A stretch of DNA of 52,892 bases from a virus: positions 1 to 52,892 of IMG/VR virus record IMGVR_UViG_3300036791_000331. One strand, written 5' to 3'. This document shows, piece by piece, positions 1-52,892 of this stretch; the first letter of the stretch is position 1; the number at the start of each line of letters is the position of its first letter. The notes below the pieces were generated by a model. That model saw nothing but the letters and a program-made list of their open reading frames with translations. It searched no databases and was not told where the DNA came from. The position numbers were made by a program, and so were the translations under genes.

Positions 1-127
1 CGTTCTCAGACCAGGACCAGGACCCCATCGTCGTCAAAGACTGGGTGCGAGCCCAGATCGGCGCGCCCGCGTTCAAGCCCAACGGCAAGGCGAACGGTCA
101 CGCCAACGGCAAGGCGAACGGTCACGC
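1..127. repeat. Terminal direct repeat, left copy (circular contig overlap)
   Basis: Bases 1-127 are identical to 52766-52892. An open reading frame crosses the join without interruption, so the sequence is best read as a circular map with a 127-base overlap. A length of 127 is a common assembler k-mer, so the repeat is probably an assembly artefact rather than physical phage ends; this last point is inference. Two tandem 24-base units (81-104 and 105-128) lie at its end and encode the NGKANGHA linker of the replication protein. Confidence 0.93.
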
Positions 128-2305: not shown

Positions 2306-2776
2306 ATGAGCGCGCCTGAACCCCGGATCGGCCAGACGCATCGCCGCAACTCGGCGGCGTCGGTGAATGCCATTTCGGTCTTAGCGTTGGCCGACGACAG
2401 CGCGAGGGTCATCGAGGACTCCTGTGGTGCGAATCAGGTTCGGGATGCAGTCGTCGAGTGTGGGGTGTGTCGCCTGTGCTGTCATCACCAGAAGGTCATG
2501 GTCACGGATGGCGATGATCCAGGGCGCTACGACACCGAGCAGATCGGACCCTTCCTGTTCCTCAAGCAGCGCCCGGACGGCGCGTGTGTGCATCTTGGTC
2601 CTGGCGGTTGTGGGGTCTACGCCGACCGGCCGAGGATATGCCGGGCCTTCGACTGCGGAGGCTGGTTCCGCTCGATCCCTCGCAACGAGCGGCGGCGCAT
2701 GTCCAAAGAGGACGCTACGGTGGCCGCGCTTATCAAGCGCGGCCGTGAGGTATCGGCACGTCAGGTGTTACCGTAA
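2306..2776 (+). CDS. YkgJ-like cysteine-cluster protein
   Basis: 156 aa. The cysteine pattern CGVCRLCC, then a GCGVYADRPRICRAFDC segment, is the signature of the YkgJ / CxxCxxCC zinc- or iron-chelating family. Biochemical function is not settled for most members. The ATG at 2306 was chosen, but the conserved part begins around residue 50, so the true start could be later. A second member is at 9599-10210. The gene lies alone between the repeat cluster and the regulated promoter at 2.78 kb. Confidence 0.72.
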   Translation: MSAPEPRIGQTHRRNSAASVNAISVLALADDSARVIEDSCGANQVRDAVVECGVCRLCCHHQKVMVTDGDDPGRYDTEQIGPFLFLKQRPDGACVHLGPGGCGVYADRPRICRAFDCGGWFRSIPRNERRRMSKEDATVAALIKRGREVSARQVLP

Positions 2777-9339: not shown

Positions 9340-9602
9340 CGCGCCTGCCCATCGATCACTGCCCCTACTGCGGGAAGCCGCACGACTCGGCGACGAACGC
9401 CGATCCTGGTCGGGACGAGCGCCCGCCGGAGCCGGGCGACGCCTCGATGTGTATCGGCTGCGGCTCGATGCTGATCTTCGACGACGACCTGAAGCTCTCG
9501 AAGCCCGATCCCGAAACGCTGCAAATTCTGCTCTCCGATGCGCGTGTCCAACAGATGATCGGCGCGTGGCTTGAGGGGAAGTTCGGAGCGAAGCCGGGAT
9601 GA
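9336..9602 (+). CDS. Zinc-ribbon protein
   Basis: 88 aa, ATG 9336. HCPYCGKPHD and CIGCGSMLIF form two CxxC knuckles about 30 residues apart, as in small zinc ribbons. The C-terminal helix may be a protein interaction region. Coupled to the YkgJ-like gene that follows. Confidence 0.64.
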   Translation: MTRLPIDHCPYCGKPHDSATNADPGRDERPPEPGDASMCIGCGSMLIFDDDLKLSKPDPETLQILLSDARVQQMIGAWLEGKFGAKPG

Positions 9603-10210
9603 CCGAACACGTCGAGATCGGCGGCCAGATGGGCTCGATGGCGCGACCCGCGCCAAGCCGCTCGTGCGCGGGCTGCGACCTGTGCTGCACGGCCGCCAGC
9701 GTCGCGGAGATAGGCAAGCCCGCCGGAGTCCGTTGCCCGTCCCTGACGGCCCTCAGAGCGCCGGGAACCAACTGCATGATCTACGAGCATCGGCCTGGGG
9801 TCTGCCGGTCGTTCATGTGCATCTGGCGGGCGTCCGACGTGGCGCTCGACGATGCGTTCTTCCCGGCCGACTGCGGCTTCTGCCTGTGGGTGAACGACCC
9901 GTTCGTGTGGCCGATGACGATCACGGTCGGCTACGACCCGAAGCGCCCGACCGCCTGGGATCGACCGCACTTCCGCGCCCGGTTCAAGGCGCTCGCCTGG
10001 GAACTCAACTGCATCGTCGCCATCGGCCAGGGCGAACTCGCCACCCACATTTTTGCGCCGTCCGGCAAGGTGTTCGCCAAGGCGAAGCGCCCGGACCTGT
10101 TCATCGACGGTGGTAAGCAGGTCGGCCTGCCGGGCAAGGAGTTCCGGGCCGGTGTGCGGCTGACGGTCGCCGAGATCGCCAAGGCGATCCTGGGCTACGC
10201 CTCACGATGA
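9599..10210 (+). CDS. YkgJ-like cysteine-cluster protein (second copy)
   Basis: 203 aa, ATG 9599. CAGCDLCCTAA at residues 22-32, then CPSL, NCMIYEHRPGVCRSFMC and ADCGFC give the full CxxCxxCC cluster of the YkgJ family. It is longer than and only distantly similar to the 2306-2776 product. The family is thought to bind zinc or an iron-sulfur cluster; a phage role is not known to me. Confidence 0.75.
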   Translation: MTEHVEIGGQMGSMARPAPSRSCAGCDLCCTAASVAEIGKPAGVRCPSLTALRAPGTNCMIYEHRPGVCRSFMCIWRASDVALDDAFFPADCGFCLWVNDPFVWPMTITVGYDPKRPTAWDRPHFRARFKALAWELNCIVAIGQGELATHIFAPSGKVFAKAKRPDLFIDGGKQVGLPGKEFRAGVRLTVAEIAKAILGYASR

Positions 10211-10626
10211 CCAGTAGACCTCCGAAGAAGGGCAAGGGCAGTTCGATCCAGGCGCGCGTGACCCAGGACGTGCGCGACGAGATCGACGCCGAGGCCGAGA
10301 GAACCGGACGTTCGGTCTCCCAGGTTGTAGAGGTCGCCATCGAGCGCGGTCGAATAGTCGCTGATCTCGGCGCGCTGCTGCGCGTGGTGGCCGACATTAT
10401 TGGCCAGGAGGACCCCAGTATGCTCTCCCACGTTCCACCATCCGAACGCCCCCGGCCGGACGGTGATCTGGCTCAGGTGAAGGTATCGCTGGACTGGAAA
10501 ACCATCACCCTGCGCTGCGACGACGAGGCGGCGCTCGGGCGCATCTTCATGTGGCTGATAGGGCAAGTCGATCTGTCGCAGAGCGGCGAAAGCGATCCGC
10601 CTTCAGCTGCCGGTCGAAATAGCTGA
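10207..10626 (+). CDS. Ribbon-helix-helix DNA-binding protein
   Basis: 139 aa. [35 protein letters not shown] at the N-terminus is a clear Arc/CopG-like fold; residues 80-115 form a second small beta-rich domain. Last gene of the 2.88-10.6 kb operon. Its final 80 bases overlap, on the opposite strand, the end of the epimerase gene, so antisense effects between the two transcripts are possible. Confidence 0.66.
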
Positions 10627-11542
10627 TCGTCTTCGGCAGGCCGTCGCTCAGCGACGTGTTCGCCGACCACTTCAGCAGCCGCTTCGCATCGGAGATATCC
10701 GGCCGCCGCTGTTTCGGATCGTCCTGCGGCAACGGGCCGTAGACGATCCTGGACCTGGAGCCGGTGAGTTCGATGATCGCCTCGGCGAGCGTGCCGATGG
10801 TGATCTCGTCCGGGTTACCGAGGTTGATCGGCCCGGTGAGCGGCTCCGGCGCGTTCATCAGTCGAACGAGGCCGTCGATGAGATCATCGACATAGCAAAA
10901 CGACCTGGTTTGATGGCCATCGCCGAACAGCGTGATCTCCTGGCCCAGCAGCGCCTGGACGATGAAGTTCGACACCACGCGCCCGTCGTTCGGGTGCATT
11001 CGAGGGCCATAGGTGTTGAATATCCTGGCGATCCTGATCCGCAGCTGGTGCTGGCGGCGATACTCGAAAAACAGCGTCTCGGCGCAGCGCTTGCCTTCGT
11101 CGTAGCAGGCGCGAGGTCCTATCGGGTTGACGTTGCCCCAGTAGTGCTCGGGCTGCGGGCTGATGGCCGGATCACCGTAGACCTCGGACGTGGACGCCTG
11201 GAGTATCTTCGCGCCGCAGCGCTTAGCGAGCCCGAGCATGTTCACCGCGCCGAGCACGCTGGTCTTGGTGGTCTGGACCGGATCGCGCTGATACTGGACC
11301 GGCGAGGCCGGGCAGGCGAGGTTGAATATCTGATCGACCTCGATGTAGAGCGGCAGGCAGATATCGTGCCGGATCACCTCGAAATTGCGGCTGTCGCGGA
11401 GGTGCTCGATGTTGCTCGGCCGCCCGGTCGAGAAGTTGTCCACGCAGATGACGTAGGCGCCGCCATAGAGCAGATGTTCGCACAGATGTGCGCCGAGAAA
11501 ACCAGCCCCGCCGGTCACCAGCACGCGGTTGTCCTGGCTCAT
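10547..11542 (-). CDS. NAD-dependent sugar epimerase/decarboxylase, UDP-glucuronate decarboxylase-like
   Basis: 331 aa from ATG 11542, which overlaps the upstream gene's stop. It is a short-chain dehydrogenase of the extended type: GGAGFLG NAD-binding loop (11-17), STSEVYG, and catalytic YDEGK (Y147, K151). The stretch from [19 protein letters not shown] to [16 protein letters not shown] closely follows UDP-xylose synthases (UXS), which convert UDP-glucuronate to UDP-xylose. Within the phage it would supply a nucleotide sugar, plausibly to the glycosyltransferase at 14474-15406. Exact product specificity cannot be fixed from motifs; a 4-epimerase is the alternative. Confidence 0.87.
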
Positions 11543-12754: not shown

Positions 12755-13405
12755 ATGCCCAACGCGCAGTCATGGCCCGCTGATCACGTCGAACGACTGC
12801 CGCTCGACTCCCTCGTGCCCGACGCCCGCAACGCCCGGATGCACAGCGACGCGCAGGTGGCCCAGATCGCCGCCTCGATCCGCGAGTGGGGCTGGACCAT
12901 CCCGGTTCTGGTCGATGAGCAGGGTACGATAATCGCGGGTCACGGCCGGGTCCTGGCGGCGTTGAAGCTGGGTCTCACCGATGTGCCGGTCATGACGGCC
13001 AAGGGTTGGTCGGACAGTCAGAGGCGCGCCTACGTCATCGCCGACAACAAGCTGGCCGAGAACGCCGACTGGGACAGGTCGATGCTGCGGATCGAGTTGG
13101 AGGGTCTCACCGAGGAAGGCTTCAACCTCGATCTCGTCGGCTTCAGCGAAGTGGAGTTGACCAGCCTCTTCCTGGACCGCGAGGAAGGCGAGAACGACCC
13201 CAACGCCGAGTGGGCCGGGATGCCCGGCTTCGAGCAAGAGGCCGCAGGTTTCCACCACGTCGTCGTCCACTTTTCCGACCAGGACGGCATGGACGCCTTT
13301 GCGCAGCTGGTCGGCCAGCCCGTGACCAAGACCGTTCGATACCTGTGGTTCCCGCCCGTCGAGCCCGAGCGCGTAGCCGGAAAGGTGGCCTATGCCGCAG
13401 CCTAA
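12755..13405 (+). CDS. ParB-like protein linked to base modification
   Basis: 216 aa from ATG 12755. LDSLVPDARNARMHS, IREWGWTIPVLVDE, GTIIAGHGRVLAALKLG and YVIADNKLAENADWD form a ParB/Srx-type domain (residues 10-115). The C-terminal part (EWAGMPGFEQE, VVVHFSDQDGMDAF, WFPP) is the extension typical of phage ParB proteins found near DNA-modification genes. Such proteins may read, nick or guide modification of DNA. It overlaps the radical SAM gene by 14 bases, so the two are probably translated together. Confidence 0.83.
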   Translation: MPNAQSWPADHVERLPLDSLVPDARNARMHSDAQVAQIAASIREWGWTIPVLVDEQGTIIAGHGRVLAALKLGLTDVPVMTAKGWSDSQRRAYVIADNKLAENADWDRSMLRIELEGLTEEGFNLDLVGFSEVELTSLFLDREEGENDPNAEWAGMPGFEQEAAGFHHVVVHFSDQDGMDAFAQLVGQPVTKTVRYLWFPPVEPERVAGKVAYAAA

Positions 13406-14477
13406 CTGGGCCAAGATCATCAAATCCTGGGGGCCTGTGCCGAAGAAGGTCAAGCCGCTCGGCTCCACCTCGCCCATCGTGTGGATCGTCGAGCCGTACT
13501 TCGGCTGCAACCTGCGCTGCGGCCACTGCTGTGCTGGCCTTATTCCGAGGGCCGACGAACAGGCCATGCAGACGAAGGTCTGGTACGAGACGTTCCGCAC
13601 GCTCAACGCCGTCTCCCCCACCGTCCGCGTCGATATCGCAGGTGTGGTCGGCGAGCCGACCATGAACACCAAGCTCACCGAGTTGCTGGCCGTCGCCCGC
13701 AGGCTTGCCCCGCAGGCGCAACTCCAGATCACCACCAATGGGACGAAGCTGCTCGGCAAGCGCGGCAAGGTCAACTACAAAGCCCTGCTCGATGCTGGCG
13801 CGAACATCATCTACACCGACCAGTACGGGCCGCACGAACGCTTCGAAGCTCTGGCCGCCGCCTCGGGATATCCGTTCTACACTTACTATGACAAGCCCGC
13901 TGGCGCGCCGACGCCGTGGCAATACTACGGCCCCAACGCCAAGTTCATCTGCCTCATGGATCAGCCCGAGGATTGGCCGCAGAGCCGCTACCGGGCCAAC
14001 CTTCTGGGCAACTGGCTGGGCCATCTGGACTGGGAGGCAGGCAAGCGCTTCGGCATGAAGCCGCTCGCCGAGCCCATCGCCCGCCGCTGCAACCAGCCGT
14101 TCCAGGACGTCACCGTCTCGGCCTCGGGCGACTACCTGCTCTGTTGCCAGGACGGCATGCACAAGACGGCAGGCCGCTTCGGGAATGTGCTCGACGGGCC
14201 GGAGGGCTTCCGCCGCTTCTGGTATGGCGAAGAGATGCAGATCATCCGGCGTCGGCTGCGCCTGAAGAACCGCGCCGACACCACCGACGCCTGCGCCAAG
14301 TGCAACATCACGTTCAGCCGCTGCGATCTCAAACACTGGGAGGACCAGCAGGTGGAGCAGTTCTGGGACGGGACGTCCTGGCAGAAGATGAAGTTCGATC
14401 CGCATGTCGGCCCCTTCGACACCCCGGCGGTCGTTAAGCGAACCTCTCCTGGGCGCGTTCCTACTCTCGCCGAATGA
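13392..14477 (+). CDS. Radical SAM enzyme with SPASM-like C-terminal domain
   Basis: 361 aa. The cluster-binding motif CNLRCGHC (C39, C43, C46) follows the first strand (PIVWIVEPYFG). DIAGVVGEPTMN and ITTNGTKL are typical of the barrel. The C-terminus has RRCNQPF, YLLCCQDG and CAKCNITFSRC, the cysteine-rich SPASM-type region that holds extra iron-sulfur clusters. Such enzymes carry out radical chemistry on peptides or other large substrates. Position between ParB and glycosyltransferase genes, each overlapping, argues for a role in DNA base modification; peptide modification is the alternative. Confidence 0.88.
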   Translation: MPQPNWAKIIKSWGPVPKKVKPLGSTSPIVWIVEPYFGCNLRCGHCCAGLIPRADEQAMQTKVWYETFRTLNAVSPTVRVDIAGVVGEPTMNTKLTELLAVARRLAPQAQLQITTNGTKLLGKRGKVNYKALLDAGANIIYTDQYGPHERFEALAAASGYPFYTYYDKPAGAPTPWQYYGPNAKFICLMDQPEDWPQSRYRANLLGNWLGHLDWEAGKRFGMKPLAEPIARRCNQPFQDVTVSASGDYLLCCQDGMHKTAGRFGNVLDGPEGFRRFWYGEEMQIIRRRLRLKNRADTTDACAKCNITFSRCDLKHWEDQQVEQFWDGTSWQKMKFDPHVGPFDTPAVVKRTSPGRVPTLAE

Positions 14478-15406
14478 CATCCCCTCGCTTCAGGCCGCCG
14501 CACCCGATCTATATCCCGAGCAAGGGTCGGGCCGACTCCCGGCTAACCATGAAGGCGCTCGATGTCATGGGCGTCGACTATCTGGTCGTCGTCGAGCACC
14601 AGGAGCTTGACGCCTACGCCGCCGTCATCCCGCGCCGCCGGTTGCTGGTGCTCGATCCGGCCTACCAGCGCGACTACGACACCTGCGACAAGCTCGGCGA
14701 GGCCAAGGGCAAGGGCTCCGGCCCGGCGCGCAACTTCATCTGGGATCACGCCAAGGACGCCGGGGCCGAGTGGCACTGGACGGTGGACGACAACATCCGA
14801 GGCTTTCACCGGCTACACCAGAACTCCAAAGTGCCCGCCACCAGCCCGACGATCTTCACCGCCATGGAGGACTTCACCGCCCGCTACACCAACGTGGCGA
14901 TGGCCGGGCCGAACTACTATATGTTTGCGCCGCGCAAGAAGAAGATCCTTGTCTTTACGGCCAACACCCGGATCTACTCTTGCAATTTGATAAAGACGCC
15001 GCTGCCCTACCGTTGGCGCGGACGGTATAACGAGGACACCGACCTGTCGCTGCGGATGCTCAAGGACGGCTTCTGCACGATCCTGTTCAACGCCTTCCTG
15101 CAACAGAAGACGCCCACCCAGGTCATGAAGGGCGGCAACACCGACACGATCTACGTCGGCGGCACCGAGGCGAAGTCCAGGATGATCGCCCGCCTTCACC
15201 CGGACGTGGCGCGCGTGGTCTGGAAGTTCAGCCGCGTCCACCATGAGATCGACTATCGGCCGTTCCGCAACAACAAGCTGATCCGCCGCCCCGATCTCGT
15301 CATCCCCGAGGGCGCCGACGAATACGGCATGGCCCTGGTGCAGCTGGAGAACCGCCGTGGCCCTGACCGGACGCCCGCCGAAGCCAACCAAGCTCAAGAA
15401 GCTTGA
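14474..15406 (+). CDS. TET-associated glycosyltransferase (TAGT)-like
   Basis: 310 aa. PIYIPSKGRADSRLT (11-25), GPARNFIWDHA, HWTVDDNIRGF (DDN at 105-107, metal/sugar-nucleotide site), NTRIYSCNLI and RYNEDTDLSLRMLKDG (184-199) match the GREB1/TAGT glycosyltransferase family. Known relatives in phages sit beside TET dioxygenases and put sugars on oxidised pyrimidines in DNA. Here the neighbours are ParB and radical SAM genes instead. ATG 14474 overlaps the radical SAM stop, and the gene end overlaps the small terminase start by 50 bases. Confidence 0.85.
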   Translation: MTSPRFRPPHPIYIPSKGRADSRLTMKALDVMGVDYLVVVEHQELDAYAAVIPRRRLLVLDPAYQRDYDTCDKLGEAKGKGSGPARNFIWDHAKDAGAEWHWTVDDNIRGFHRLHQNSKVPATSPTIFTAMEDFTARYTNVAMAGPNYYMFAPRKKKILVFTANTRIYSCNLIKTPLPYRWRGRYNEDTDLSLRMLKDGFCTILFNAFLQQKTPTQVMKGGNTDTIYVGGTEAKSRMIARLHPDVARVVWKFSRVHHEIDYRPFRNNKLIRRPDLVIPEGADEYGMALVQLENRRGPDRTPAEANQAQEA

Positions 15407-15866
15407 AGGCAACCCAGGACATCGCCGCCTCAACGACAGGGAGCCGCAACCGACAGGAGCGCCGATCAAGCCGGACTTCGTGACCGGCGAGGCGTCGAAG
15501 GAGTGGGATAGACTGGTCGGCGCTATGCCTGACGGGCTCTATACCGACGCCGATGCTCCGACGCTGGCGGTCTATTGCATTGCATGGGTTCTACACCGCA
15601 ACAGCCTCGCCGTCGTCTCACGCGAGGGGATGTTCTCGACGGGGTCGATGGGACAGCGGGTGGTCAACCCGGCGCTGCTGATCCAGGCCAAGCAAGCCGA
15701 GGTGATCCTAAAGGCAGGCGACCGTCTCGGCCTGTCGCCGGTAGCCAGGACGCGGCTGGCGACGGGCGACGCGCCCGAAAGCCAAGGAAAGTTCAGCGGA
15801 CTGTTCGGCGGCGCGCAGCTACGACTGGTAACGAGCAACGAGCCGAAAGGGTCTGCGCCTTCATAG
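15357..15866 (+). CDS. terS: Terminase small subunit (P27-like)
   Basis: 169 aa from GTG 15357. GRPPKPTKLKKLEGNPGHR and ASKEWDRLVGAM...DAPTLAVYCIAW, then LGLSPVARTRL, are the hallmarks of P27-family small terminases, which recognise packaging DNA and load the motor. It starts inside the glycosyltransferase gene and is followed directly by the large subunit. Confidence 0.88.
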   Translation: MALTGRPPKPTKLKKLEGNPGHRRLNDREPQPTGAPIKPDFVTGEASKEWDRLVGAMPDGLYTDADAPTLAVYCIAWVLHRNSLAVVSREGMFSTGSMGQRVVNPALLIQAKQAEVILKAGDRLGLSPVARTRLATGDAPESQGKFSGLFGGAQLRLVTSNEPKGSAPS

Positions 15867-17371
15867 AGCAGCTGACCGTCCCCTCCGGGGTCGGTTCGGG
15901 AGAGAATATCCGTCTGCGCTCCTGGCAGCGTGAGTTCATCTTCGACGTGTATGCGCCGCAGTACGAGGACGGCGCGCGGATGGTCCGCCGCGCTGTGTTC
16001 AGCCTGGGGAGGAAGAACGGCAAGACGCTGCTCGCGGCCGCCCTGGTGCTGGTGCATCTGGTCGGGCCCGAGGCCGAGCGCAACGGCGAAATCTACAGCG
16101 CCGCGAACGACCGCGAGCAAGCCGCCCAGGTGTTCAAGATGGCCCGGCAGATGGTCGAGGCCGAGCCGGAGTTGGGTCGCCGCCTACGGGTGATCAATTC
16201 CACCAAGACCATCGTCTGCCTCGGCAACGGCAGTTTCTACCGCGCCCTGTCCGCCGAGAGCGGCACCAAGCACGGCCTGAACCCCACCTTCGTCATCTTC
16301 GACGAACTGGCCCAGGCCCGCAGCCGTGATCTCTACGATGTCCTGGACACCAGCATGGGGGCCCGCGCCGAGCCGCTGTTCCTGGCCATCTCCACCCAGA
16401 GCAACGACCCGGAGCACATCTGCTCGAAGCTGATCGACGACGGCCTGAGCGGCGAGGACCCGACCACCGTCTGTCACCTCTACGCCGCGCCCGAAGACTG
16501 CGACCTGATGGACGAGGCGGCCTGGAAAGCCGCCAACCCGGCGCTGGGGGACTTCCGTTCGCACGAAGAACTGGCGGTGCTCATGGCCAAGGCCAAGCGG
16601 CTCCCGGCCGAAGAGCCGAAGGTGAGGAACCTCTACCTCAACCAGCGCGTCAACCCGATGTCGACGCTGATCTCCCGCCGCGACTGGATGGGCTGTCGCG
16701 GAGCCTGCGACTGGATACCGGGCGAGCGCGTCTACCTGGGCCTGGACCTGAGCGCCAAGGTCGATCTCTGCGCCCTGGTCGGCATATCGGCCGATGACGG
16801 CTCGCGGGTGAAGTCCTGGTTCTGGAAGCCTGCGGACTTCCTGGAGGACCACGAGCGCCGCGACCGTGCGCCCTATCGCCTGTGGACGAACAGGGGCTGG
16901 ATCGAGGCGGTGGCCGGGCGGTCGATCCACCCTCGGGCCGTCGCCCTGAAGCTGGCCGAGATCAGCGCCGAGTATCAGGTGGTCGGCGTCGCCTACGACC
17001 GCTGGGGCATTCAGAACCTGCTGCGGGAGTTCGATGAGGTCGGCCTGGAGGCTTACCAGGACGGCGAGCCCGGAGACGGCCTGCGGCTGGTGTCCTGGGG
17101 CCAAGGCTTCCGCGATATGGGCCCGGCCATCGACGCGCTGGAGACCGCCGTCCTGCACGGCCAGCTTATCCACGACGAGAACCCGGTCCTGTCCTGGTGC
17201 ATGGGCAACGCCGTCGCCATCACCGACCCAGCCGGGAACCGAAAGCTGGACAAGAGCAAGGCGCGGTTCCGCATCGACGGCGCGGTGGCCCTGGCCATGG
17301 CGGTCGGGCTCAAGGACCGCGAACGCGAGTCAGAAGAAAAGCCCAAGGAATACCAGATGCTTGTGCTGTAA
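15584..17371 (+). CDS. terL: Terminase large subunit
   Basis: Packaging ATPase-nuclease. Conserved homology begins around 15830 (ERVCAFIEQLTV), then FSLGRKNGKTLLAAALV (Walker A), FVIFDELAQ (Walker B) and the RNase H-like nuclease with YLGLDLSAKVDL and VAYDRWGI. The reading frame is open from TTG 15575/ATG 15584, giving up to 595 aa, but this would overlap the small subunit by about 280 bases in another frame with a non-protein-like N-terminus. No ATG/GTG/TTG lies near the expected start, so an unusual start or a TerS-TerL frameshift must be considered. Confidence 0.9.
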   Translation: MGSTPQQPRRRLTRGDVLDGVDGTAGGQPGAADPGQASRGDPKGRRPSRPVAGSQDAAGDGRRARKPRKVQRTVRRRAATTGNEQRAERVCAFIEQLTVPSGVGSGENIRLRSWQREFIFDVYAPQYEDGARMVRRAVFSLGRKNGKTLLAAALVLVHLVGPEAERNGEIYSAANDREQAAQVFKMARQMVEAEPELGRRLRVINSTKTIVCLGNGSFYRALSAESGTKHGLNPTFVIFDELAQARSRDLYDVLDTSMGARAEPLFLAISTQSNDPEHICSKLIDDGLSGEDPTTVCHLYAAPEDCDLMDEAAWKAANPALGDFRSHEELAVLMAKAKRLPAEEPKVRNLYLNQRVNPMSTLISRRDWMGCRGACDWIPGERVYLGLDLSAKVDLCALVGISADDGSRVKSWFWKPADFLEDHERRDRAPYRLWTNRGWIEAVAGRSIHPRAVALKLAEISAEYQVVGVAYDRWGIQNLLREFDEVGLEAYQDGEPGDGLRLVSWGQGFRDMGPAIDALETAVLHGQLIHDENPVLSWCMGNAVAITDPAGNRKLDKSKARFRIDGAVALAMAVGLKDRERESEEKPKEYQMLVL

Positions 17372-19700: not shown

Positions 19701-19731
19701 CTCCAGGACAGCGCGTTTTGCTGTCCTGGAG
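19701..19731 (+). terminator. Perfect 12-bp stem-loop after the capsid gene
   Basis: CTCCAGGACAGC (19701-19712) pairs exactly with 19720-19731 around a 7-base loop. No U-tract follows, so it may be a partial terminator, an RNA processing site or an mRNA-stabilising hairpin protecting the capsid message. It separates the capsid gene from the PEP-CTERM gene. Confidence 0.6.
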
Positions 19732-19759
19732 CCACCTTCCAACCCCCGGAGACACCCTT

Positions 19760-20275
19760 ATGAAGTTGAGTTCGGTTTTCGCCGCCCTGGCCGCCTTCGG
19801 CTTGACTGCGGTCCTGGCGGCGGCGGCCCACGCCGCGCTGATCGTCACCGCCATCCCTGGCGGTCCATTCTCGCCCGCCAACCCGCTCGGCACGATCCCG
19901 TCGACCGATCTCTTCCAGGGCAACACCTATGACTTCACGTTCGGTATCTCCGGGACCGGATCGGTGCTGACCGAGGTTGAGGCGGCCATTGCCGGGCCGG
20001 TCTCGGAGCCCATCGACTTCAGCCTCTACTCGGGTGATCCGGGCTCGGGGACGCTGATCGGCACGTCGACGCTGATGGACGGCCCGTCGATGACGGAAAC
20101 GCTGGGCGTCGGATCGTACTTCCTCCAGGTCGACACCATCGAAGCCAACGGCGAACTCTTCGATGGCGGCCTCCAGGTCGCCAGTGTCCCGGAGCCCGCG
20201 ACATGGGCGCTGGCGCTGGTCGGCATGGCCAGCCTCGGCGGTGCGATGCGCCTGCGCCGCGTAGCGCGAGGGTGA
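19760..20275 (+). CDS. Secreted protein with PEP-CTERM sorting signal (FxDxA/PEPxxWA type)
   Basis: 171 aa from ATG 19760 (CCGGAG upstream). A signal peptide (MKLSSVFAALAAFGLTAVLA...AHA, about residues 1-26) is followed by a beta-rich domain with YDFTFGISG, FSLYSGDPG and VGSYFLQVDT. The C-terminus is VPEPATWALALVGMASLGG, then a basic RLRR tail: a textbook PEP-CTERM tripartite signal recognised by exosortase EpsH/XrtA-type systems. In bacteria such proteins go to the outer surface and are linked to exopolysaccharide. It lies between capsid and portal genes with a hairpin before it, like a moron. Phage role unknown: surface change of the host, exclusion, or head decoration. Confidence 0.88.
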   Translation: MKLSSVFAALAAFGLTAVLAAAAHAALIVTAIPGGPFSPANPLGTIPSTDLFQGNTYDFTFGISGTGSVLTEVEAAIAGPVSEPIDFSLYSGDPGSGTLIGTSTLMDGPSMTETLGVGSYFLQVDTIEANGELFDGGLQVASVPEPATWALALVGMASLGGAMRLRRVARG

Positions 20276-20519: not shown

Positions 20520-21952
20520 TGCAAATCTTCGGCCTGGAGATCACCCGCGCCAAGGCCGCGCCCTCGTCGGCGTTGACGGGGCCGGAGAACGCCTTTGCGC
20601 CGGTCGATGGCCGGGGCGGCGGCTGGTTCCCGATCATCCGCGAGGCCAATACCGGCGACTGGCAGAAGAACATCGTCACCTCTGGGGTGAGCGTCCTTCA
20701 GTCGGTGTGGGTGTTCCGCTGCATTTCGCTGATCTCCACCGACATCGCCAAGCTGGGCATCGAACTACGCCAGGAGACCGGCGGTGTGTGGCGGGAGACC
20801 ACCTCGGCGGCGTTCTCGCCCGTGCTCACCACGCCGAACAGCTACCAGAACCGCATCCAGTTCATCGAAAACTGGGTGATCTCCAAGATGACCCGAGGCA
20901 ACGCCTACGTCCTGAAAGAGCGTGACGCGCGCAACGTGGTGGTGGCGCTGCATGTGCTTCACCCTGACCGGGTGTGGCCGCTGGTGGCCCCGGACGGCTC
21001 GGTGTTCTACCGCATCGGCCGCGATCTCCTGGCGGGCGTGGGCGAGCCTGATCCCGACTTTCCGGCGGTCCCGGCCAGCGAGATCATCCACGACCGCTGG
21101 AATTGCCTGTTCCACCCGCTCGTCGGCCTGAGCCCTATCTTCGCCTGCGGCATGGTGGCGCTCCAAAACGTCTCGATGCAGGCGGCGATGACCCGCCTGT
21201 TCCGCAACGGCGCGCGTCCCGGCGGTATCCTGACCGCGCCCGGCGCGATCTCCGACAGCACCGCCCAACGGCTCAAGGACTATTGGGAAAACAACTTCAC
21301 CGGAGAGAATGCGGGCAAGGTGGCGGTGCTCGGCGACGGCCTGACCTTCTCCAGCCTGATGATGACGGCCACCGATGCCCAGTTCATCGAACAGATGAAG
21401 CTGTCCGGGCAAACCATCGCCGCGTCGTTCGGCGTCCCGGCCTACATGATCAACCTGGAGGTCTATCCGCGCTCGGTGGCTATCGAAGCGTTGATGCAGA
21501 TGTATTATGGCCAATGCCTCCAGATACACGTCGAGAGCATCGAACTCTGCCTGCACGACGGCCTTGCGCTGCCGCCGCAGTACGACGTGAAGTTCAACCT
21601 CGATGGCCTGCTGCGCATGGATCAGGCGTCGCAGATCAAGGCCCTGGTCGAGGGCATCGGCGGCGGGCTCTACGCGCCGAACGAGGGCCGCGAAAAGCTG
21701 AGCCTGCCGCCGGTCGAGGGTGGTGAGAGCCCGTACTTGCAGCAACAGAACTACAGCCTCGCCGCGCTCGCCAAGCGCGACGCCCAGAACCCGCTCGCCA
21801 ACCCGCCCCCGGCTCCTGGCGGCGATACCGCGCCGGATGGCGGAGCCGTCGCCGAGACCACCCAGGACGAGGCCGCCAACGCCGAGCAGGCCGCAGGCAA
21901 GTCGTGGTGGAATGAGGTGCTCGCCCATGTCGACCTCTACCTTGCTGCCTGA
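20519..21952 (+). CDS. Portal protein (HK97-type)
   Basis: 477 aa from ATG 20519. VWVFRCISLISTDIAKLGIEL, RNAYVLKERDA-like stretch, LLAGVGEPDPDFPAVPASEIIHDRW, LKDYWENNFTG and FGVPAYMI follow the HK97 portal family, the dodecameric ring through which DNA enters the head. The C-terminus is a Pro/Ala-rich tail ending in a helix. It lies after the capsid gene rather than before it, an unusual order. Confidence 0.92.
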   Translation: MQIFGLEITRAKAAPSSALTGPENAFAPVDGRGGGWFPIIREANTGDWQKNIVTSGVSVLQSVWVFRCISLISTDIAKLGIELRQETGGVWRETTSAAFSPVLTTPNSYQNRIQFIENWVISKMTRGNAYVLKERDARNVVVALHVLHPDRVWPLVAPDGSVFYRIGRDLLAGVGEPDPDFPAVPASEIIHDRWNCLFHPLVGLSPIFACGMVALQNVSMQAAMTRLFRNGARPGGILTAPGAISDSTAQRLKDYWENNFTGENAGKVAVLGDGLTFSSLMMTATDAQFIEQMKLSGQTIAASFGVPAYMINLEVYPRSVAIEALMQMYYGQCLQIHVESIELCLHDGLALPPQYDVKFNLDGLLRMDQASQIKALVEGIGGGLYAPNEGREKLSLPPVEGGESPYLQQQNYSLAALAKRDAQNPLANPPPAPGGDTAPDGGAVAETTQDEAANAEQAAGKSWWNEVLAHVDLYLAA

Positions 21953-22778
21953 CCCGCGCGCCTTCGCCGATCAGCTGACGGCGCGGATGCGCGGCGCCAT
22001 CGCGCCCGTCGCTGCCCGCCTGGAGCGGATCGAAGCGCTGCCTCCCGCCCGCGATGGCCGCGACGGCCTCTCAGGCGTCCAGGGACCGGCCGGGGAGAAA
22101 GGCGAGCGGGGTGATCCTGGCCCGATGGGAACGGCCGGGAGCGACGGCCCAGAGGGCGCTATGGGCCTGATGGGGCCGATAGGTCTGACCGGCGACAAGG
22201 GTGATCCTGGCCGGGACGGGATCGACGGCGTGGACGGCGCTCCAGGCCCGCAGGGACCGGCCGGGGAGAAAGGCGAGAAGGGCGAGAAGGGCGACGCGGG
22301 CGAGCCGGGACCGGCCGGGAGCGACGGCGCGGACGGCGCTACAGGCGCGCAAGGGCCGGAGGGAGAGAAGGGCGAGAAGGGCGACGCGGGCGAGCCGGGA
22401 CCGGCCGGGAGCGACGGCTATACGCTCGACCATTTCAACGTCGAACTCGCGGCCGGTGGCCGGGTGCTGATCCTGACCCTGACCAGCGGCGACCGCGTTC
22501 AGCGCCGCGAGCTACGCACGGCGCTGATGATCTATCGGGGCGTGTTCAAGCCGGGCGACAGCTACGAGCAGGGCGACACGGTGACGTGGGCCGGATCGCT
22601 CTGGCACTGCAACGGCGCGACGCTCGAAAAGCCGGGCGACGGCGAGACCTGGACGCTGGCGGTCAAGAAAGGCCGCGACGGCAAGGACGGGGCCCACGGC
22701 GAGAGGGGCGAGCCGGGGCCGCAGGGCCGCGCCGGGCACGACCTGACCCAGATGACGCCCGAGGGAGCCCGGTACTGA
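21927..22778 (+). CDS. Collagen-like protein with carbohydrate-binding-like module
   Basis: 283 aa from ATG 21927, overlapping the portal gene by 26 bases. A helical head (residues 1-40) precedes about 40 Gly-X-Y triplets (GPAGEKGEKGEKGDAGEPG and similar), a beta module (about 165-250) with YRGVFKPGDSYEQGDTV and SLWHCNGATLEKPGDGETW resembling chitin-binding type modules, then a second short collagen stretch. Collagen-like repeats form trimeric rods in phage fibres. In the head region this could be a head or neck fibre, or a whisker. Confidence 0.85.
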   Translation: MSTSTLLPDPRAFADQLTARMRGAIAPVAARLERIEALPPARDGRDGLSGVQGPAGEKGERGDPGPMGTAGSDGPEGAMGLMGPIGLTGDKGDPGRDGIDGVDGAPGPQGPAGEKGEKGEKGDAGEPGPAGSDGADGATGAQGPEGEKGEKGDAGEPGPAGSDGYTLDHFNVELAAGGRVLILTLTSGDRVQRRELRTALMIYRGVFKPGDSYEQGDTVTWAGSLWHCNGATLEKPGDGETWTLAVKKGRDGKDGAHGERGEPGPQGRAGHDLTQMTPEGARY

Positions 22779-43155: not shown

Positions 43156-43555
43156 ATATCTGCGCTGTCAGTTGAGGCTAATTGGCGCACCCCGCCCGCC
43201 TGCGGAACGGGCTAAGCTGCCCGCTCGGGGCCTGGGACACATTGTCTCAGGCGCGCTCGGGTGGGTCCGGGCGTGTCACCGCCCCAACGAAACGGGAATG
43301 TTCGTGCAGGGTGTCACCGCTGCGTTTTGGGCCAACTGTTTGCGGAGTGAAAACAAGCGGGTAGCGGGTTGAGGCATTTGAACGTCAACATCTTGTTACC
43401 ACTGTCTCTAGGTGGTTCTGCGTGTGTCTATGTGTTCCACAACCCGAATAGCTTCAATCGGTTAGCTTTACAAAACGTGTCTGCGCGTCTCTCCCTGTTT
43501 CTCCACGTTTCACGCAATTGTGCGTGCAAAAGTGTCACCACGAGAGAACTCAGAT
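43156..43555. other. 400-base gene-free region before the integrase; candidate attP
   Basis: No convincing gene. It holds three direct GTGTCACC repeats (43273-43280, 43311-43318, 43532-43539), the first two extended to GTGTCACCGC, and an imperfect palindrome CCTGGGACA-cat-TGTCTCAGG at 43231-43251. The sequence becomes AT-rich after 43370. Direct repeats beside an integrase gene fit arm-type integrase sites, but no core tRNA sequence is recognised. Confidence 0.45.
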
Positions 43556-44905
43556 ATGTCCAAACCCCTCGACCCACTCGCCCTGGCGAGAGCCGTCAAG
43601 CGTTGCCAGAAGCTCGGGAAGGAAGGCCGCTTCCCGGCCGGTCCTGGCCTATCCCTGGTCGTCACCGCAGCCGGGCGCGCCCGGTTCGTCCACCGCTATC
43701 CGTGGTGCGGCAAATACGAGAGCCTCTGGCTCGACGGCTGCTACCCGCGTGACGTGACCCTGGCCGAGGCCCGGCGTCAGTGCGAGGCGCACCGGGAACT
43801 CCTGGACCAGCGCATCAGCCCCAAGAGCGAGCGCCGCGACGGCGGTCTCGGCGCGAACCCGACCCTCGCCGAGTACGCGCGTCACCACTTCAAGATGCTG
43901 GCCACGCCGAAGGATATCCGCCTCGGCCCGGAGCGGTCGGAATGGCTCCGCGACATGACCATCCACGTCGGGGCCTTGGCGAGCACGCCCATCGACAACA
44001 TCGTGCGCACGCAGATCGTGGCGGCGTTGGCCGGACGGTGGGTGGACATGACCCCGACGCCTTCGGGCAAGCGTATCCTGATGCGGTTGAAGAACGTCCT
44101 GGCGCACCGGCACGACAACGCCCGCCCGGACGATGAGCACTGGCAGAACCCGGCCAGCCTCAAGGCGATGTGCAACCTGCTCGGGAAGCGCCCGCATCGC
44201 CGCACGTCGCGCCCGAGCCTGTCCTGGATCGATCTGCCCACGTTCATGACGGCGCTCCGGGCGGTGGAGTTGATGTCCGCCCGCGCCCTGGAGTGGGTGA
44301 TCCTGACCGGCTCTCGCTCGGCCGAGACGACCGGCGCGCGGTGGGGCGAGATCAACTGGCGGAGCCGGACCTGGACGATCCCGCCCGAGCGGCTCAAGAC
44401 CGAGCAGAACAAGGGCTCGCACGGCCAGCCGTTCGTCATCCCGCTGTCCCTGGCCATGGTGCAGCTGCTGCGGCGCACGGCCAAGCACCGCCGCGATCTC
44501 GCGCCGAACGACCTGATCTTTCCGAGCGGGGCGAGTATCCGGCCGAAGGAATACGGCGGCAACGCACTGCTGTTCCTGGCCCAGGACATCGCGCCTGGGA
44601 TCACGGTCCATGGCTTCCGGGCGAGCTTGGTGGCCTGGGGCGCAGGCACGGCCCACCGCGACCGCGACCCGTTCGCCCTGGACCTGATGGACAGGGTGAT
44701 CGGCCACCAGATCGGCTCCCGGCACGGTCAGGCGACGGCGCTCTCGGGCGCCATCATCAACTACGCCCACGACGCCGGGGGCGATCTCTACCTGCCCCGG
44801 CGCAAGGCGGTGATGCGGGAGTGGAGCGCCTACCTGGGCGGCCGGACCCACTCGCCGAAGCGCGGGCCTGCGCGGGCTCCGGCGGTCCTGGCGCTGGCCG
44901 CATAG
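43556..44905 (+). CDS. int: Tyrosine integrase (P4-like)
   Basis: 449 aa from ATG 43556. N-terminal arm-binding domain (about 1-100), a core-binding helical domain (105-215) and a catalytic domain with R254 in TGSRSAE, H352-x-x-R355 (HGFR), H384 in VIGHQIG and the likely nucleophile Y403 in INYAHD. All residues of the tyrosine recombinase active site appear present. It would join phage and host DNA at att sites; paired with the excisionase-like gene at 46323-46526. No gene follows it on this strand. Confidence 0.9.
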   Translation: MSKPLDPLALARAVKRCQKLGKEGRFPAGPGLSLVVTAAGRARFVHRYPWCGKYESLWLDGCYPRDVTLAEARRQCEAHRELLDQRISPKSERRDGGLGANPTLAEYARHHFKMLATPKDIRLGPERSEWLRDMTIHVGALASTPIDNIVRTQIVAALAGRWVDMTPTPSGKRILMRLKNVLAHRHDNARPDDEHWQNPASLKAMCNLLGKRPHRRTSRPSLSWIDLPTFMTALRAVELMSARALEWVILTGSRSAETTGARWGEINWRSRTWTIPPERLKTEQNKGSHGQPFVIPLSLAMVQLLRRTAKHRRDLAPNDLIFPSGASIRPKEYGGNALLFLAQDIAPGITVHGFRASLVAWGAGTAHRDRDPFALDLMDRVIGHQIGSRHGQATALSGAIINYAHDAGGDLYLPRRKAVMREWSAYLGGRTHSPKRGPARAPAVLALAA

Positions 44906-51172: not shown

Positions 51173-51562
51173 ATGGACGTCAATTTCAACCGAGACAACA
51201 AATTCGACTTGCAGCTGAGCCAAGCTATCATCGATGAGAGGCGGCTGGCTGAAATATTCTGCGCGTCCAGGTTGGAAAAGATCGAGCTTAAATCCGAGAC
51301 ATTTCAGTGGGAGCAGACGGGCAATATCGCTATCGAGTATGAGCAGAACGGACGACCAAGCGGGATAGCTGTCACTGAGGCTGACTACTGGGTGCATGAA
51401 TTAAAACGAGATGGCGAGACGCTCGTTTATCTCATGTTTCCGACGTCCAGGCTCAAAGACCTCGCGCGCGAAGCATTTCGGCAGAAGCGTTTCCGCACAG
51501 GCGCGGGAGATGGCGGGCTCTTCAGCGTTGTGCTGCTTAGGCTGCGGGACATTCTGCGATGA
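51173..51562 (+). CDS. Putative PD-(D/E)XK-type nuclease
   Basis: 129 aa from ATG 51173. FDLQLSQAIIDERRLAEIF, IELKSETFQWEQTGNIAIEYEQNGRPSGIAVTEADYW contains an E-x-K pair after a strand and a TGNIAIE motif, as in small phage nucleases of this superfamily. The gene is clearly more AT-rich than its neighbours, a sign of horizontal acquisition. Its end overlaps the methyltransferase start. Confidence 0.66.
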   Translation: MDVNFNRDNKFDLQLSQAIIDERRLAEIFCASRLEKIELKSETFQWEQTGNIAIEYEQNGRPSGIAVTEADYWVHELKRDGETLVYLMFPTSRLKDLAREAFRQKRFRTGAGDGGLFSVVLLRLRDILR

Positions 51563-52584
51563 CAACCGATCTTACAATCGTCAACCGCGAGAATCACCTT
51601 CAGACCGTCCCGGCGGCGCTCAAGGCCCTGGCGGCGATGCGGATTGAGCTCGAAAGCGCCAAGACATACGCTGACATCCACAAGGCTATCGATACCGCCA
51701 AGGCGATCAAGCTACTGTGGAGCGACGTCGAGGTCGTCAAGGTCGAGGCCGAAGATACCATCCTGGCGGCGACTGTGCGGATCGGCGAGGAATTGAAGCG
51801 CATCCCGAAAGCGTCGGGCGGCAATTCAAATCTCCCAAGGTTGGGAGATTTGGGCCGCGAGGCGACCGGACTGCCGAGCACGATGCGCTCGCGCCACATG
51901 GCCCTCGCTGAGCACAAGGCCGACATCGCGGCCGCCTCCGAGAGGCTACGCGCGCAGGGCAAGGATGCGACGCCGAACGCAGTCGTGCGCGAGTTAACCC
52001 AAGGCGACAAAAAGCAGAGACGAGCAACGCGCGAGCGCGACTTGGGTCAGCGCCAGCGCCAGCTGCCCGCTGATCAGCGATATGGCGTGATCTACGCCGA
52101 CCCGCCCTGGTCGTTCACGCCCTACAGCACCGAGACCGGCATGGATCGGGCGGCCGACAACCACTACCCGACGATGACGGTCGAGGCGATTGCGGCGCTT
52201 CCGGTCCCGGCCGCCGAGGACGCTGTCCTGTTTCTGTGGGCGACGGTCCCGATGCTTCCCGAGGCGCTCGCCGTCATGGCGGCTTGGGGTTTCGCCTATA
52301 AGTCCCACTTCGTATGGGTGAAGGATAAGGTAGGCACGGGTTACTGGAGCCGCAATCGGCATGAACTATTGCTGATCGGCACGCGAGGCTCGGTTCCTGC
52401 GCCTGCGCCCGGCGACCAGTATGAGTCGGTGATCTCTGCGGCGCGGGGCGAACACAGCGCCAAACCTTTCGCCTTTCGTGAAATGATAGACGACCTCTTT
52501 CCAACCTTGCCGCGCATCGAGCTCTTTGCTCGGGGTGAGAGCTATGTCGGCTGGGATGCTTGGGGGAACGAGGCTGGCGGTTGA
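51559..52584 (+). CDS. MT-A70 family adenine methyltransferase
   Basis: 341 aa, ATG 51559. The C-terminal half has VIYADPPWSF (catalytic DPPW at 181-184), PTMTVEAIAALPV, LFLWATVP, YKSHFVWVKDK and HELLLIGTRG, the features of MT-A70 N6-adenine methyltransferases. The N-terminal 170 residues are helical with a likely DNA-contact region. Phage methylation of this kind commonly protects DNA from restriction. Precedes the primase-helicase, 15 bases apart. Confidence 0.88.
   Translation: MTTDLTIVNRENHLQTVPAALKALAAMRIELESAKTYADIHKAIDTAKAIKLLWSDVEVVKVEAEDTILAATVRIGEELKRIPKASGGNSNLPRLGDLGREATGLPSTMRSRHMALAEHKADIAAASERLRAQGKDATPNAVVRELTQGDKKQRRATRERDLGQRQRQLPADQRYGVIYADPPWSFTPYSTETGMDRAADNHYPTMTVEAIAALPVPAAEDAVLFLWATVPMLPEALAVMAAWGFAYKSHFVWVKDKVGTGYWSRNRHELLLIGTRGSVPAPAPGDQYESVISAARGEHSAKPFAFREMIDDLFPTLPRIELFARGESYVGWDAWGNEAGG
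51827..51852. repeat. Perfect 12-bp inverted repeat inside the methyltransferase gene
   Basis: CAAATCTCCCAA (51827-51838) and its exact complement (51841-51852) flank GG. It is AT-rich within a GC-rich gene and encodes SNLPRLGDLG. It could be a protein-binding site or a strong mRNA hairpin regulating translation of the methyltransferase domain. Confidence 0.65.
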
Positions 52585-52599
52585 GCGGGGAGACGGGCC

Positions 52600-52892
52600 A
52601 TGCAACTCGTCATTGAAGATGTCTGCGCGGCTCTCCACGGAAAGATCACCCACGACGACAAGGGCCGCCGGGTTATCCGCTGCCCTGGTCCTGGCCATTC
52701 CCGCAATGATCTCTCGCTCTCGGTCTGGGTGTCCGACGACGAGCCGGACGGGTTCGGCGTCTACTCGTTCTCAGACCAGGACCAGGACCCCATCGTCGTC
52801 AAAGACTGGGTGCGAGCCCAGATCGGCGCGCCCGCGTTCAAGCCCAACGGCAAGGCGAACGGTCACGCCAACGGCAAGGCGAACGGTCACGC
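52600..52892 (+). CDS. Primase-helicase, N-terminal part (continues at base 1)
   Basis: ATG 52600, preceded by GGGGAG (52587-52592). The frame reads MQLVIEDVCAALHGKITHDD... then IRCPGPGHSRNDLSLSVWV (zinc-ribbon-like primase start), and passes into the terminal repeat in frame with bases 3-1616. It directly follows the methyltransferase gene. Confidence 0.9.
   Translation, partial: MQLVIEDVCAALHGKITHDDKGRRVIRCPGPGHSRNDLSLSVWVSDDEPDGFGVYSFSDQDQDPIVVKDWVRAQIGAPAFKPNGKANGHANGKANGH
52766..52892. repeat. Terminal direct repeat, right copy
   Basis: Identical to bases 1-127; see the left copy. Removing one copy leaves 52,765 bp as the circular map length. Confidence 0.93.

What the first reader, a model, noticed from the sequence alone, without database searches (positions are those of the whole stretch)
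12755..15406. ParB - radical SAM/SPASM - TAGT glycosyltransferase cassette: a possible new DNA base modification system
Three overlapping genes, read with the terminase genes, encode a ParB-like protein, a radical SAM enzyme with a SPASM-type tail and a TET-associated-type glycosyltransferase. A UDP-glucuronate decarboxylase-like gene lies about 2 kb away (10547-11542), which would give UDP-xylose. TAGT relatives normally work after TET oxidises 5-methylcytosine, yet I find no TET dioxygenase, C5-cytosine methyltransferase or hydroxymethyl-pyrimidine synthase. Radical SAM chemistry may create the attachment point instead, giving a pentose-bearing base. Peptide modification by the radical SAM enzyme is the rival reading.
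Basis: partly seen in the sequence, partly recalled or inferred. Interest (0 to 1): 0.87.

Follow-up and report, generated by a model that had tools for sequence, protein, structure and literature searches.

The report
TET-free phage DNA-glycosylation cassette with radical SAM
A complete temperate-phage genome carries a tightly packed gene set that most likely attaches an unusual sugar to the phage's own DNA and reworks that sugar with a radical enzyme, without any of the enzymes known to prepare DNA bases for this; the same gene set recurs in many unrelated phages.

Summary
ParB-like (12755-13405), radical SAM (13392-14477) and TAGT glycosyltransferase (14474-15406) genes overlap end to end and run into the terminase genes. 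A UDP-glucuronate decarboxylase (UXS) gene lies at 10547-11542. The contig is circularly complete (127-bp terminal repeat) and has no TET, C5-methyltransferase or thymidylate-synthase-type hydroxymethylase.

The interpretation needs changing. TAGT without TET is the rule in this subfamily. Its constant partner is an undescribed ~60-residue domain (here 'MPEF') at the C-terminus of the ParB-like protein: 79 of 79 loci found by MPEF alone carry TAGT, and the two are fused in several phages. The radical SAM enzyme is an optional plug-in scattered over the TAGT tree. All 13 records over 27 kb with this enzyme also carry TAGT. It shares its slot with epimerases, methyltransferases and glycosyltransferases. 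It has a one-cluster 'Twitch' tail, and its nearest fold is BtrN, a radical SAM alcohol dehydrogenase of aminoglycoside synthesis.

Best reading: ParB/MPEF takes TAGT to phage DNA, TAGT adds a sugar (perhaps xylose), and the radical SAM enzyme oxidises or epimerises that sugar. It probably does not make the attachment point, which stays unknown. No activity is shown for any part.

The parts
12755..13405 (+). ParB-like protein (216 aa): N-terminal ParB domain (aa 12-92) plus C-terminal MPEF domain
   Evidence: Pfam ParB_N 2.2e-5; PHROG 620 ParB-like 4.1e-50
13199..13378 (+). MPEF domain (WxxMPxF...FxxLxxQxxTxxTKxxWxP), C-terminal part of the ParB-like protein; constant partner of TAGT, no Pfam model
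   Evidence: Alignment A2; 79 of 79 MPEF-found loci carry TAGT within 4 kb; fused to the TAGT N-terminus in 7 loci and in L229
13392..14477 (+). Radical SAM enzyme with a Twitch-type (truncated SPASM) tail (361 aa)
   Evidence: Pfam; CX3CX2C at residues 39/43/46 and auxiliary Cys 233, 251, 252, 301, 304, 311; closest fold BtrN, Foldseek E 6e-11
13506..13529 (+). Radical SAM [4Fe-4S] motif C39-NLR-C43-GH-C46
   Evidence: Invariant in 15 homologues
14088..14324 (+). Twitch auxiliary-cluster region, Cys 233 to Cys 311
   Evidence: aligns with the BtrN auxiliary-cluster region
14474..15406 (+). TAGT-family (PF20691) GT-A glycosyltransferase (310 aa)
   Evidence: Pfam 1.9e-46; PHROG 842 1.2e-47; DDN 105-107, RWRGRYNEDT 180-189 and GGN 220-222 motifs mostly at or above 95% in 83 homologues
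10547..11542 (-). UDP-glucuronate decarboxylase (UDP-xylose synthase, UXS), candidate donor-sugar enzyme
   Evidence: 4gll human UXS1 E 1.4e-118 with [13 protein letters not shown] and QTR motifs kept; 64%-identical UXS in the L142 record
15357..15866 (+). Terminase small subunit, overlapping the end of TAGT; same transcription direction
   Evidence: Terminase_4 9.1e-16
15575..17371 (+). Terminase large subunit (ORF; true start is probably internal)
   Evidence: TerL_nuclease 8.2e-34, TerL_ATPase 6.6e-24

Best explanation
The cassette is a TET-independent DNA-glycosylation module. The ParB-like protein, through its C-terminal MPEF domain, acts as the subunit that brings the TAGT glycosyltransferase to phage DNA during replication or packaging. 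TAGT transfers a sugar from a nucleotide-sugar to a base; a pentose is plausible because the phage encodes UDP-xylose synthase. The Twitch radical SAM enzyme then oxidises or epimerises a carbon of that sugar, on the donor or once on DNA, in the manner of BtrN, and so diversifies the modification against restriction and glycan-specific defences. Shown: the genes, families, operon, gene-order conservation, the constant MPEF-TAGT pairing, and the absence of TET, C5-MTase and hydroxymethylase from a complete genome. Inferred: DNA as target, sugar as radical SAM substrate, xylose as donor. Unknown: which base and which atom carries the sugar.
For: MPEF is a dedicated TAGT partner: 79 of 79 loci; of 178 TAGT loci, 132 have MPEF adjacent, 29 with one gene between, 7 fused, 10 without detected MPEF, eight of these cut near the contig end. 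The cassette sits with terminase (window, L082) or inside DNA-replication modules (DnaB, sliding clamp, UDG, DNA polymerase) in L131, L143, L097/L136 by reading of the ORFs; TAGT of henriette lies between clamp loader and dUTPase/DNA polymerase, T6 TAGT next to replication genes. The PF20691 member of T6 acts on phage DNA (PMC13216743, PMC13390438) and scores above the Pfam cut-off. All 13 rSAM records over 27 kb carry TAGT. rSAM presence needs 10 changes for 11 positives on the TAGT tree (shuffled mean 10.6; at least 4 forced): a repeatedly exchanged accessory. Other genes in the slot are glycosyltransferases, SAM methyltransferases, an SDR epimerase and an unrelated radical SAM. Nearest folds: BtrN 6e-11, SuiB, DesII, SpeY, three of the four being sugar or cyclitol enzymes. 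SDR epimerase genes: 4 of 10 rSAM+TAGT records against 1 of 27 TAGT-only (Fisher p 0.014), two of the four being UXS.
Against: No chemistry or DNA analysis exists for any member close to this one. The window TAGT has no BLASTP similarity to T6 TAGT beyond a 43-residue scrap, and T6 TAGT adds glucose to a sugar, not to a base. No enzyme that would make a hydroxylated acceptor base was found, so the acceptor is unexplained. Twitch and SPASM enzymes also act on peptides (SkfB is Twitch and peptide-acting, PMC6231123), and that paper warns that function is hard to predict from similarity here; SuiB is the second-ranked fold. UXS is on the opposite strand outside the operon and is absent from most rSAM-TAGT records. 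The epimerase enrichment rests on small numbers, and the 4/10 split was counted after seeing the data.
Confidence: 0.5

Rival explanations
1. The radical SAM enzyme acts on the DNA base and creates the attachment point that TAGT glycosylates, replacing TET.
For: No TET, C5-MTase or hydroxymethylase in this complete genome; rSAM records over 27 kb always carry TAGT; the cassette is a tight operon.
Against: Most TET-free TAGT records have no radical SAM gene at all, so TAGT works without it. The 306-kb phage has this radical SAM together with TET and MPEF-TAGT. Slot-mates are sugar enzymes. Fold nearest to BtrN.
Confidence: 0.15
2. TAGT glycosylates a protein (virion protein, terminase or the ParB/MPEF protein) and the radical SAM enzyme modifies a peptide; DNA is not the target.
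For: The cassette abuts terminase; MPEF carries an almost invariant Trp and Trp-x-Pro and could be an acceptor; SPASM/Twitch enzymes often act on peptides (PMC6231123); SuiB is the second fold hit.
Against: The PF20691 member of T6 acts on DNA (PMC13216743, PMC13390438); many loci are in replication modules and not with virion genes; the radical SAM Cys motif starts at residue 39, leaving no room for the N-terminal peptide-binding (RRE) domain described for sactisynthases; MPEF partners include ParB, a DNA-binding fold.
Confidence: 0.17
3. DNA glycosylation is right, but UXS and the radical SAM gene are unrelated to TAGT (hitch-hiking metabolic genes, or genes acting on host surface glycans).
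For: UXS is on the opposite strand and outside the operon; most TAGT phages lack both.
Against: rSAM next to TAGT in about ten separate loci in several gene orders, and in L160 an unrelated radical SAM lies between ParB/MPEF and TAGT; a second UXS in another rSAM-TAGT phage.
Confidence: 0.13

Closest known systems
T2/T6 beta-glucosyl-HMC alpha-glucosyltransferase (TAGT, PF20691)
   Same: Same Pfam family and GT-A fold class; a phage enzyme that adds sugar to phage DNA (PMC13216743, PMC13390438; T6 protein scores 37 bits)
   Different: T6 TAGT adds a second glucose to glucosyl-hmC; its ORF has no MPEF domain; the window phage has no hydroxymethylase; sequences are not alignable by BLASTP
TET/JBP-TAGT hypermodification operons of phages (Iyer et al. 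2013 and Burke et al. 2021, from memory; neither paper is held here)
   Same: TAGT glycosyltransferase in a phage, predicted complex base modification
   Different: No TET and no C5-MTase in this complete genome; TET in 1 of 47 records of this TAGT/rSAM set
RB69/Mosigvirus arabinosyl-cytosine and Shewanella phage Thanatos pentosyl-cytosine
   Same: A pentose attached to a base of phage DNA with phage-encoded sugar-nucleotide enzymes (PMC13390438, PMC12838424)
   Different: Those phages encode thymidylate-synthase-superfamily enzymes that make, or are thought to make, the modified nucleotide; absent here. No radical SAM or ParB/MPEF is described for them in the passages read
BtrN / SpeY Twitch radical SAM dehydrogenases
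   Same: Best Foldseek match (BtrN 6e-11, TM 0.75 on the target); same arrangement of auxiliary-cluster cysteines in the profile alignment
   Different: Sequence identity about 19%; phage-borne; substrate unknown
GT of Aeromonas phage Aeh1 predicted to modify an unknown base (Aeh1ORF087c, citing Iyer et al. 2013, in PMC8056088)
   Same: Aeh1 carries a MPEF-TAGT fusion of the same subfamily (about 48% identity to the window TAGT); that it is the same gene as Aeh1ORF087c is likely, not checked
   Different: No radical SAM is annotated within 5 kb of it; the base is unknown there too

Membership tests
TAGT glycosyltransferase (PF20691) | Match above the curated Pfam cut-off over the whole domain | tested here: met
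   159 bits against 27.5, profile 2-205 of 205
TAGT glycosyltransferase (PF20691) | Conserved GT-A DXD-like and ED motifs | tested here: met
   D105 D106 N107 and E187 D188 T189 at or above 95% in 83 homologues
TAGT glycosyltransferase (PF20691) | Transfers sugar to DNA | not testable with these tools
   Shown only for remote T2/T6 members (PMC13216743, PMC13390438)
TET/JBP-dependent cytosine hypermodification | TET/JBP dioxygenase in the genome | tested here: not met
   PF12851 absent from the complete window genome; the same search rang in G045
TET/JBP-dependent cytosine hypermodification | Co-occurring C5-cytosine methyltransferase | tested here: not met
   PF00145 absent
T-even/RB69-type pathway (modified dCMP incorporated, then glycosylated) | Thymidylate-synthase-superfamily hydroxymethylase or hydroxylase | tested here: not met
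   PF00303 absent
SPASM radical SAM | Seven-Cys motif CX9-15GX4C-gap-CX2CX5CX3C-gap-C (PMC6231123) | tested here: not met
   C233-X12-G246-X4-C251, C301-X2-C304-X6-C311; the later CX3C and last Cys are missing
Twitch radical SAM (BtrN-like) | Radical SAM CX3CX2C plus ligands for one auxiliary cluster, BtrN-like fold | tested here: met
   the cluster itself and the activity are not testable here
RiPP maturase | N-terminal RRE peptide-binding domain | tested here: not met
   Radical SAM motif begins at residue 39; no N-terminal domain
RiPP maturase | Precursor peptide gene nearby | not tested
   No systematic small-ORF search was made
ParB partition protein | ParB_N domain | tested here: inconclusive
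   24.8 bits, cut-off 26.3, but PHROG ParB-like 4e-50
ParB partition protein | Partner ParA and parS sites | not tested
   No ParA was seen among the ORFs scanned with Pfam; parS was not searched
UDP-glucuronate decarboxylase (UXS) | Closest to UXS with catalytic motifs intact | tested here: met
   4gll E 1.4e-118; [13 protein letters not shown] and QTR present

The most novel reading that the evidence does not exclude
A DNA hypermodification route with no hydroxylated precursor: MPEF-TAGT attaches a pentose directly to an unmodified base in DNA, and a BtrN-like radical SAM enzyme oxidises or epimerises the sugar there, giving a nucleoside not seen before. Radical SAM sugar chemistry on DNA would be a new kind of reaction.
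Probability: 0.22. Interest if true: 0.92.

Novelty: new variant of a known kind. Interest (0 to 1): 0.74.

Why it matters
A 2026 survey counted 288 of 753 phage genomes with TAGT but neither T4-type glucosyltransferase and called them potential novel transferases (PMC13216743). This work gives that group a testable anatomy: a dedicated undescribed adaptor domain, fixed gene order at replication or packaging genes, and a swappable sugar-tailoring slot that includes radical SAM enzymes. If right, phages diversify DNA sugars as bacteria diversify antibiotic sugars, and unprimed DNA glycosylation exists. Cultured phages with the same MPEF-TAGT (Aeromonas phage Aeh1, Vibrio phages 1.076.O and 1.124.O) make the base and acceptor question directly answerable.

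Tried and rejected
TET hidden in relatives: rejected, 1 of 47 records and then 0 of 12. Hydroxymethylase or C5-MTase as hidden primer: PF00303 only in Aeh1 and henriette, annotated thymidylate synthase; PF00145 in 3 of 43 and 1 of 12 records. Pfam scans of the larger window ORFs found no oxygenase; ORFs not scanned remain possible. MPEF structure: AlphaFold on the isolated domain gave pTM 0.44, too weak for a fold search. Named phages with this radical SAM: none in 50,697 records. Cellular relatives: one close match, a Desulfosporosinus MAG contig that looks like the viral contig of L136. Papers describing ParB, radical SAM and glycosyltransferase together in DNA modification: none among those held; Iyer 2013 and Burke 2021 are not held, so the claim that this combination is undescribed is not proven.
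Full report
OBSERVATION. The three genes exist as described. ParB-like 12755-13405, radical SAM 13392-14477 and TAGT 14474-15406 overlap by 14 and 4 nt and run into the terminase genes. Pfam gives TAGT 1.9e-46, Radical_SAM 6.8e-9 with SPASM 4.1e-7, and ParB_N 2.2e-5 just below its cut-off, with strong PHROG ParB matches. The gene at 10547-11542 on the minus strand is a UDP-glucuronate decarboxylase (human UXS1 4gll, 1.4e-118, catalytic motifs kept). The window is a whole virus record. Its first and last 127 bases are identical and a primase/helicase reading frame runs through the joint, so absence arguments apply to a complete genome. It has no TET, no thymidylate-synthase-type enzyme and no C5-MTase. 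It has an integrase (43520-44905) and an MT-A70 adenine methyltransferase (51559-52584).

TAGT WITHOUT TET IS NORMAL HERE. A scan with the window TAGT gave 80 viral loci. Tet_JBP was found in 1 of 47 records searched, a 306-kb phage, and in 0 of 12 further radical SAM records. PF00303 was absent from all small phages tested and present in Aeromonas phage Aeh1 and Vibrio phage henriette, where it is annotated thymidylate synthase. PF00145 was found in 3 of 43 and 1 of 12 records. The premise that TAGT normally needs TET therefore does not hold for this subfamily.

A CONSTANT PARTNER. What goes with TAGT is the C-terminal part of the ParB-like protein, a domain of about 60 residues (WxxMPxF ... 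FxxLxxQxxTxxTKxxWxP) that I call MPEF. In one group only an 80-residue stand-alone MPEF precedes TAGT. In Vibrio phages 1.076.O and 1.124.O, Aeh1 and others it is fused to the N-terminus of TAGT. A scan with MPEF alone gave 79 new loci, and all 79 carry TAGT within 4 kb. Among 178 TAGT loci, 132 have MPEF adjacent, 29 with one gene between, 7 fused and 10 without detected MPEF; eight of these are cut near the contig end, L132 has a divergent fusion visible by eye, and L141 has none. Fusion plus constant linkage argues for one complex in which MPEF couples ParB and TAGT. Caveat: the 79 are among the best 80 of 433 confirmed MPEF matches.

THE RADICAL SAM GENE IS A PLUG-IN. Profile scans found about 15 distinct viral loci of this radical SAM family and one bacterial MAG contig that looks like the viral contig of L136. 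All 13 records over 27 kb carry TAGT, within about 2.5 kb in most and elsewhere in the genome in L144 and the 306-kb phage. Gene orders differ: ParB-rSAM-TAGT, MPEF-TAGT-rSAM, rSAM-MPEF/TAGT, rSAM-ParB-TAGT. On a tree of 102 TAGTs, 11 radical SAM positives need 10 changes (shuffled mean 10.6, at least 4 forced by well-supported branches), so the gene has been gained or lost many times. Unrelated radical SAM genes occupy the same setting in L160, L079 and L141. Other genes in or beside the slot are Gly_transf_sug glycosyltransferases (L016, and weakly L062), SAM methyltransferases (L041, L213), an SDR epimerase (L020), a cytidylyltransferase-like gene (L065) and a GT9-like gene (L011). These are mostly sugar-tailoring functions, and no radical SAM match was found in most TET-free TAGT records. 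The radical SAM enzyme therefore cannot be the general maker of the attachment point.

WHAT KIND OF RADICAL SAM. The auxiliary cysteines are C233-X12-G-X4-C251, C252, C301-X2-C304, C311, nearly invariant in 15 homologues. The SPASM motif is CX9-15GX4C-gap-CX2CX5CX3C-gap-C (PMC6231123); the last two positions are missing, as in Twitch domains. A profile search ranks BtrN just after an archaeal lipid synthase and aligns both BtrN halves. An AlphaFold model (pLDDT 80) has BtrN as its best Foldseek match (6e-11), followed by SuiB, DesII and SpeY. BtrN, DesII and SpeY act on sugars or cyclitols and SuiB on a peptide (established knowledge). There is no N-terminal peptide-binding domain. PMC6231123 warns that function is difficult to predict from similarity in this group, so sugar oxidation is an inference.

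DONOR SUGAR. SDR epimerase genes occur in 4 of 10 radical SAM+TAGT records against 1 of 27 TAGT-only ones (Fisher p 0.014, counted after the fact). The L142 record encodes a UXS 64% identical to the window's. UDP-xylose is thus a reasonable donor, consistent with known pentose modifications of phage cytosine (PMC13390438, PMC12838424), but neither UXS lies inside an operon with TAGT.

TARGET. T2/T6 TAGT adds glucose to glucosyl-hmC in DNA (PMC13216743, PMC13390438). T6 TAGT matches PF20691 above cut-off but has almost no BLASTP similarity to the window enzyme. Placement supports DNA: terminase neighbours in the window and L082; helicase, sliding clamp, UDG or DNA polymerase neighbours in L131, L143 and L097/L136, recognised by eye from ORF translations; clamp loader and dUTPase neighbours in henriette. 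PMC8056088 lists an Aeh1 glycosyltransferase as presumed to modify an unknown base. I put DNA as target at about 0.75. The acceptor atom is unknown: no priming enzyme was found, so either TAGT uses an unmodified base or the primer is made by an unrecognised or host enzyme.

VERDICT. A real, recurrent, modular phage cassette, best read as TET-independent DNA glycosylation with radical SAM sugar tailoring. It differs from every DNA-glycosylation route known to me in lacking a hydroxylated-base step and in using ParB/MPEF and a Twitch radical SAM enzyme. It is a new variant of a known kind; if the unprimed reading is right it would be close to categorically new.

Noticed in passing
window 1-127 and 52766-52892: Exact 127-bp terminal repeat with a helicase gene reading through the joint: the record is a complete circular assembly, probably of a temperate phage (integrase 43520-44905).
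   Followed up: yes
window 51559-52584: MT-A70-type adenine methyltransferase matching PHROG 21315, a family that the cassette's ParB-like protein also matches, which suggests a ParB-like N-terminus.
   Followed up: no
window 19718-20275: Secreted-looking protein with a PEP-CTERM sorting signal downstream of the head genes, unusual in a phage genome.
   Followed up: no
window 21720-22778: Collagen-like triple-helix repeat protein after the portal gene, with a weak carbohydrate-binding module match.
   Followed up: no
window 2306-2776 and 9599-10210: Two CxxCxxCC (putative zinc/iron-chelating) proteins; the second match is weak.
   Followed up: no
L141 1315-2712; L160 665-1705; L079 10857-11822: Radical SAM genes of other subfamilies in or beside the ParB/MPEF-TAGT slot: different radical enzymes recruited to the same place.
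   Followed up: partly
record of L185 (G064, 364 kb): Jumbo phage with TAGT, nine radical SAM matches (several clustered near 336-350 kb) and three SDR epimerases.
   Followed up: no
record of L084 (G045, 306 kb; L229, L230): Jumbo phage with MPEF-TAGT fusion, TET/JBP and the same radical SAM family, the last next to a glycosyltransferase-like ORF.
   Followed up: partly
L065, L067, L076: Cytidylyltransferase-like (TagD-type) gene directly upstream of ParB/MPEF-TAGT, suggesting another activated substrate.
   Followed up: no
record of L143 (G056), 18.6-20.0 kb; L236: A second radical SAM (cobalamin-type by eye) next to an SDR epimerase and glycosyltransferase-like genes, away from the TAGT cassette.
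   Followed up: no
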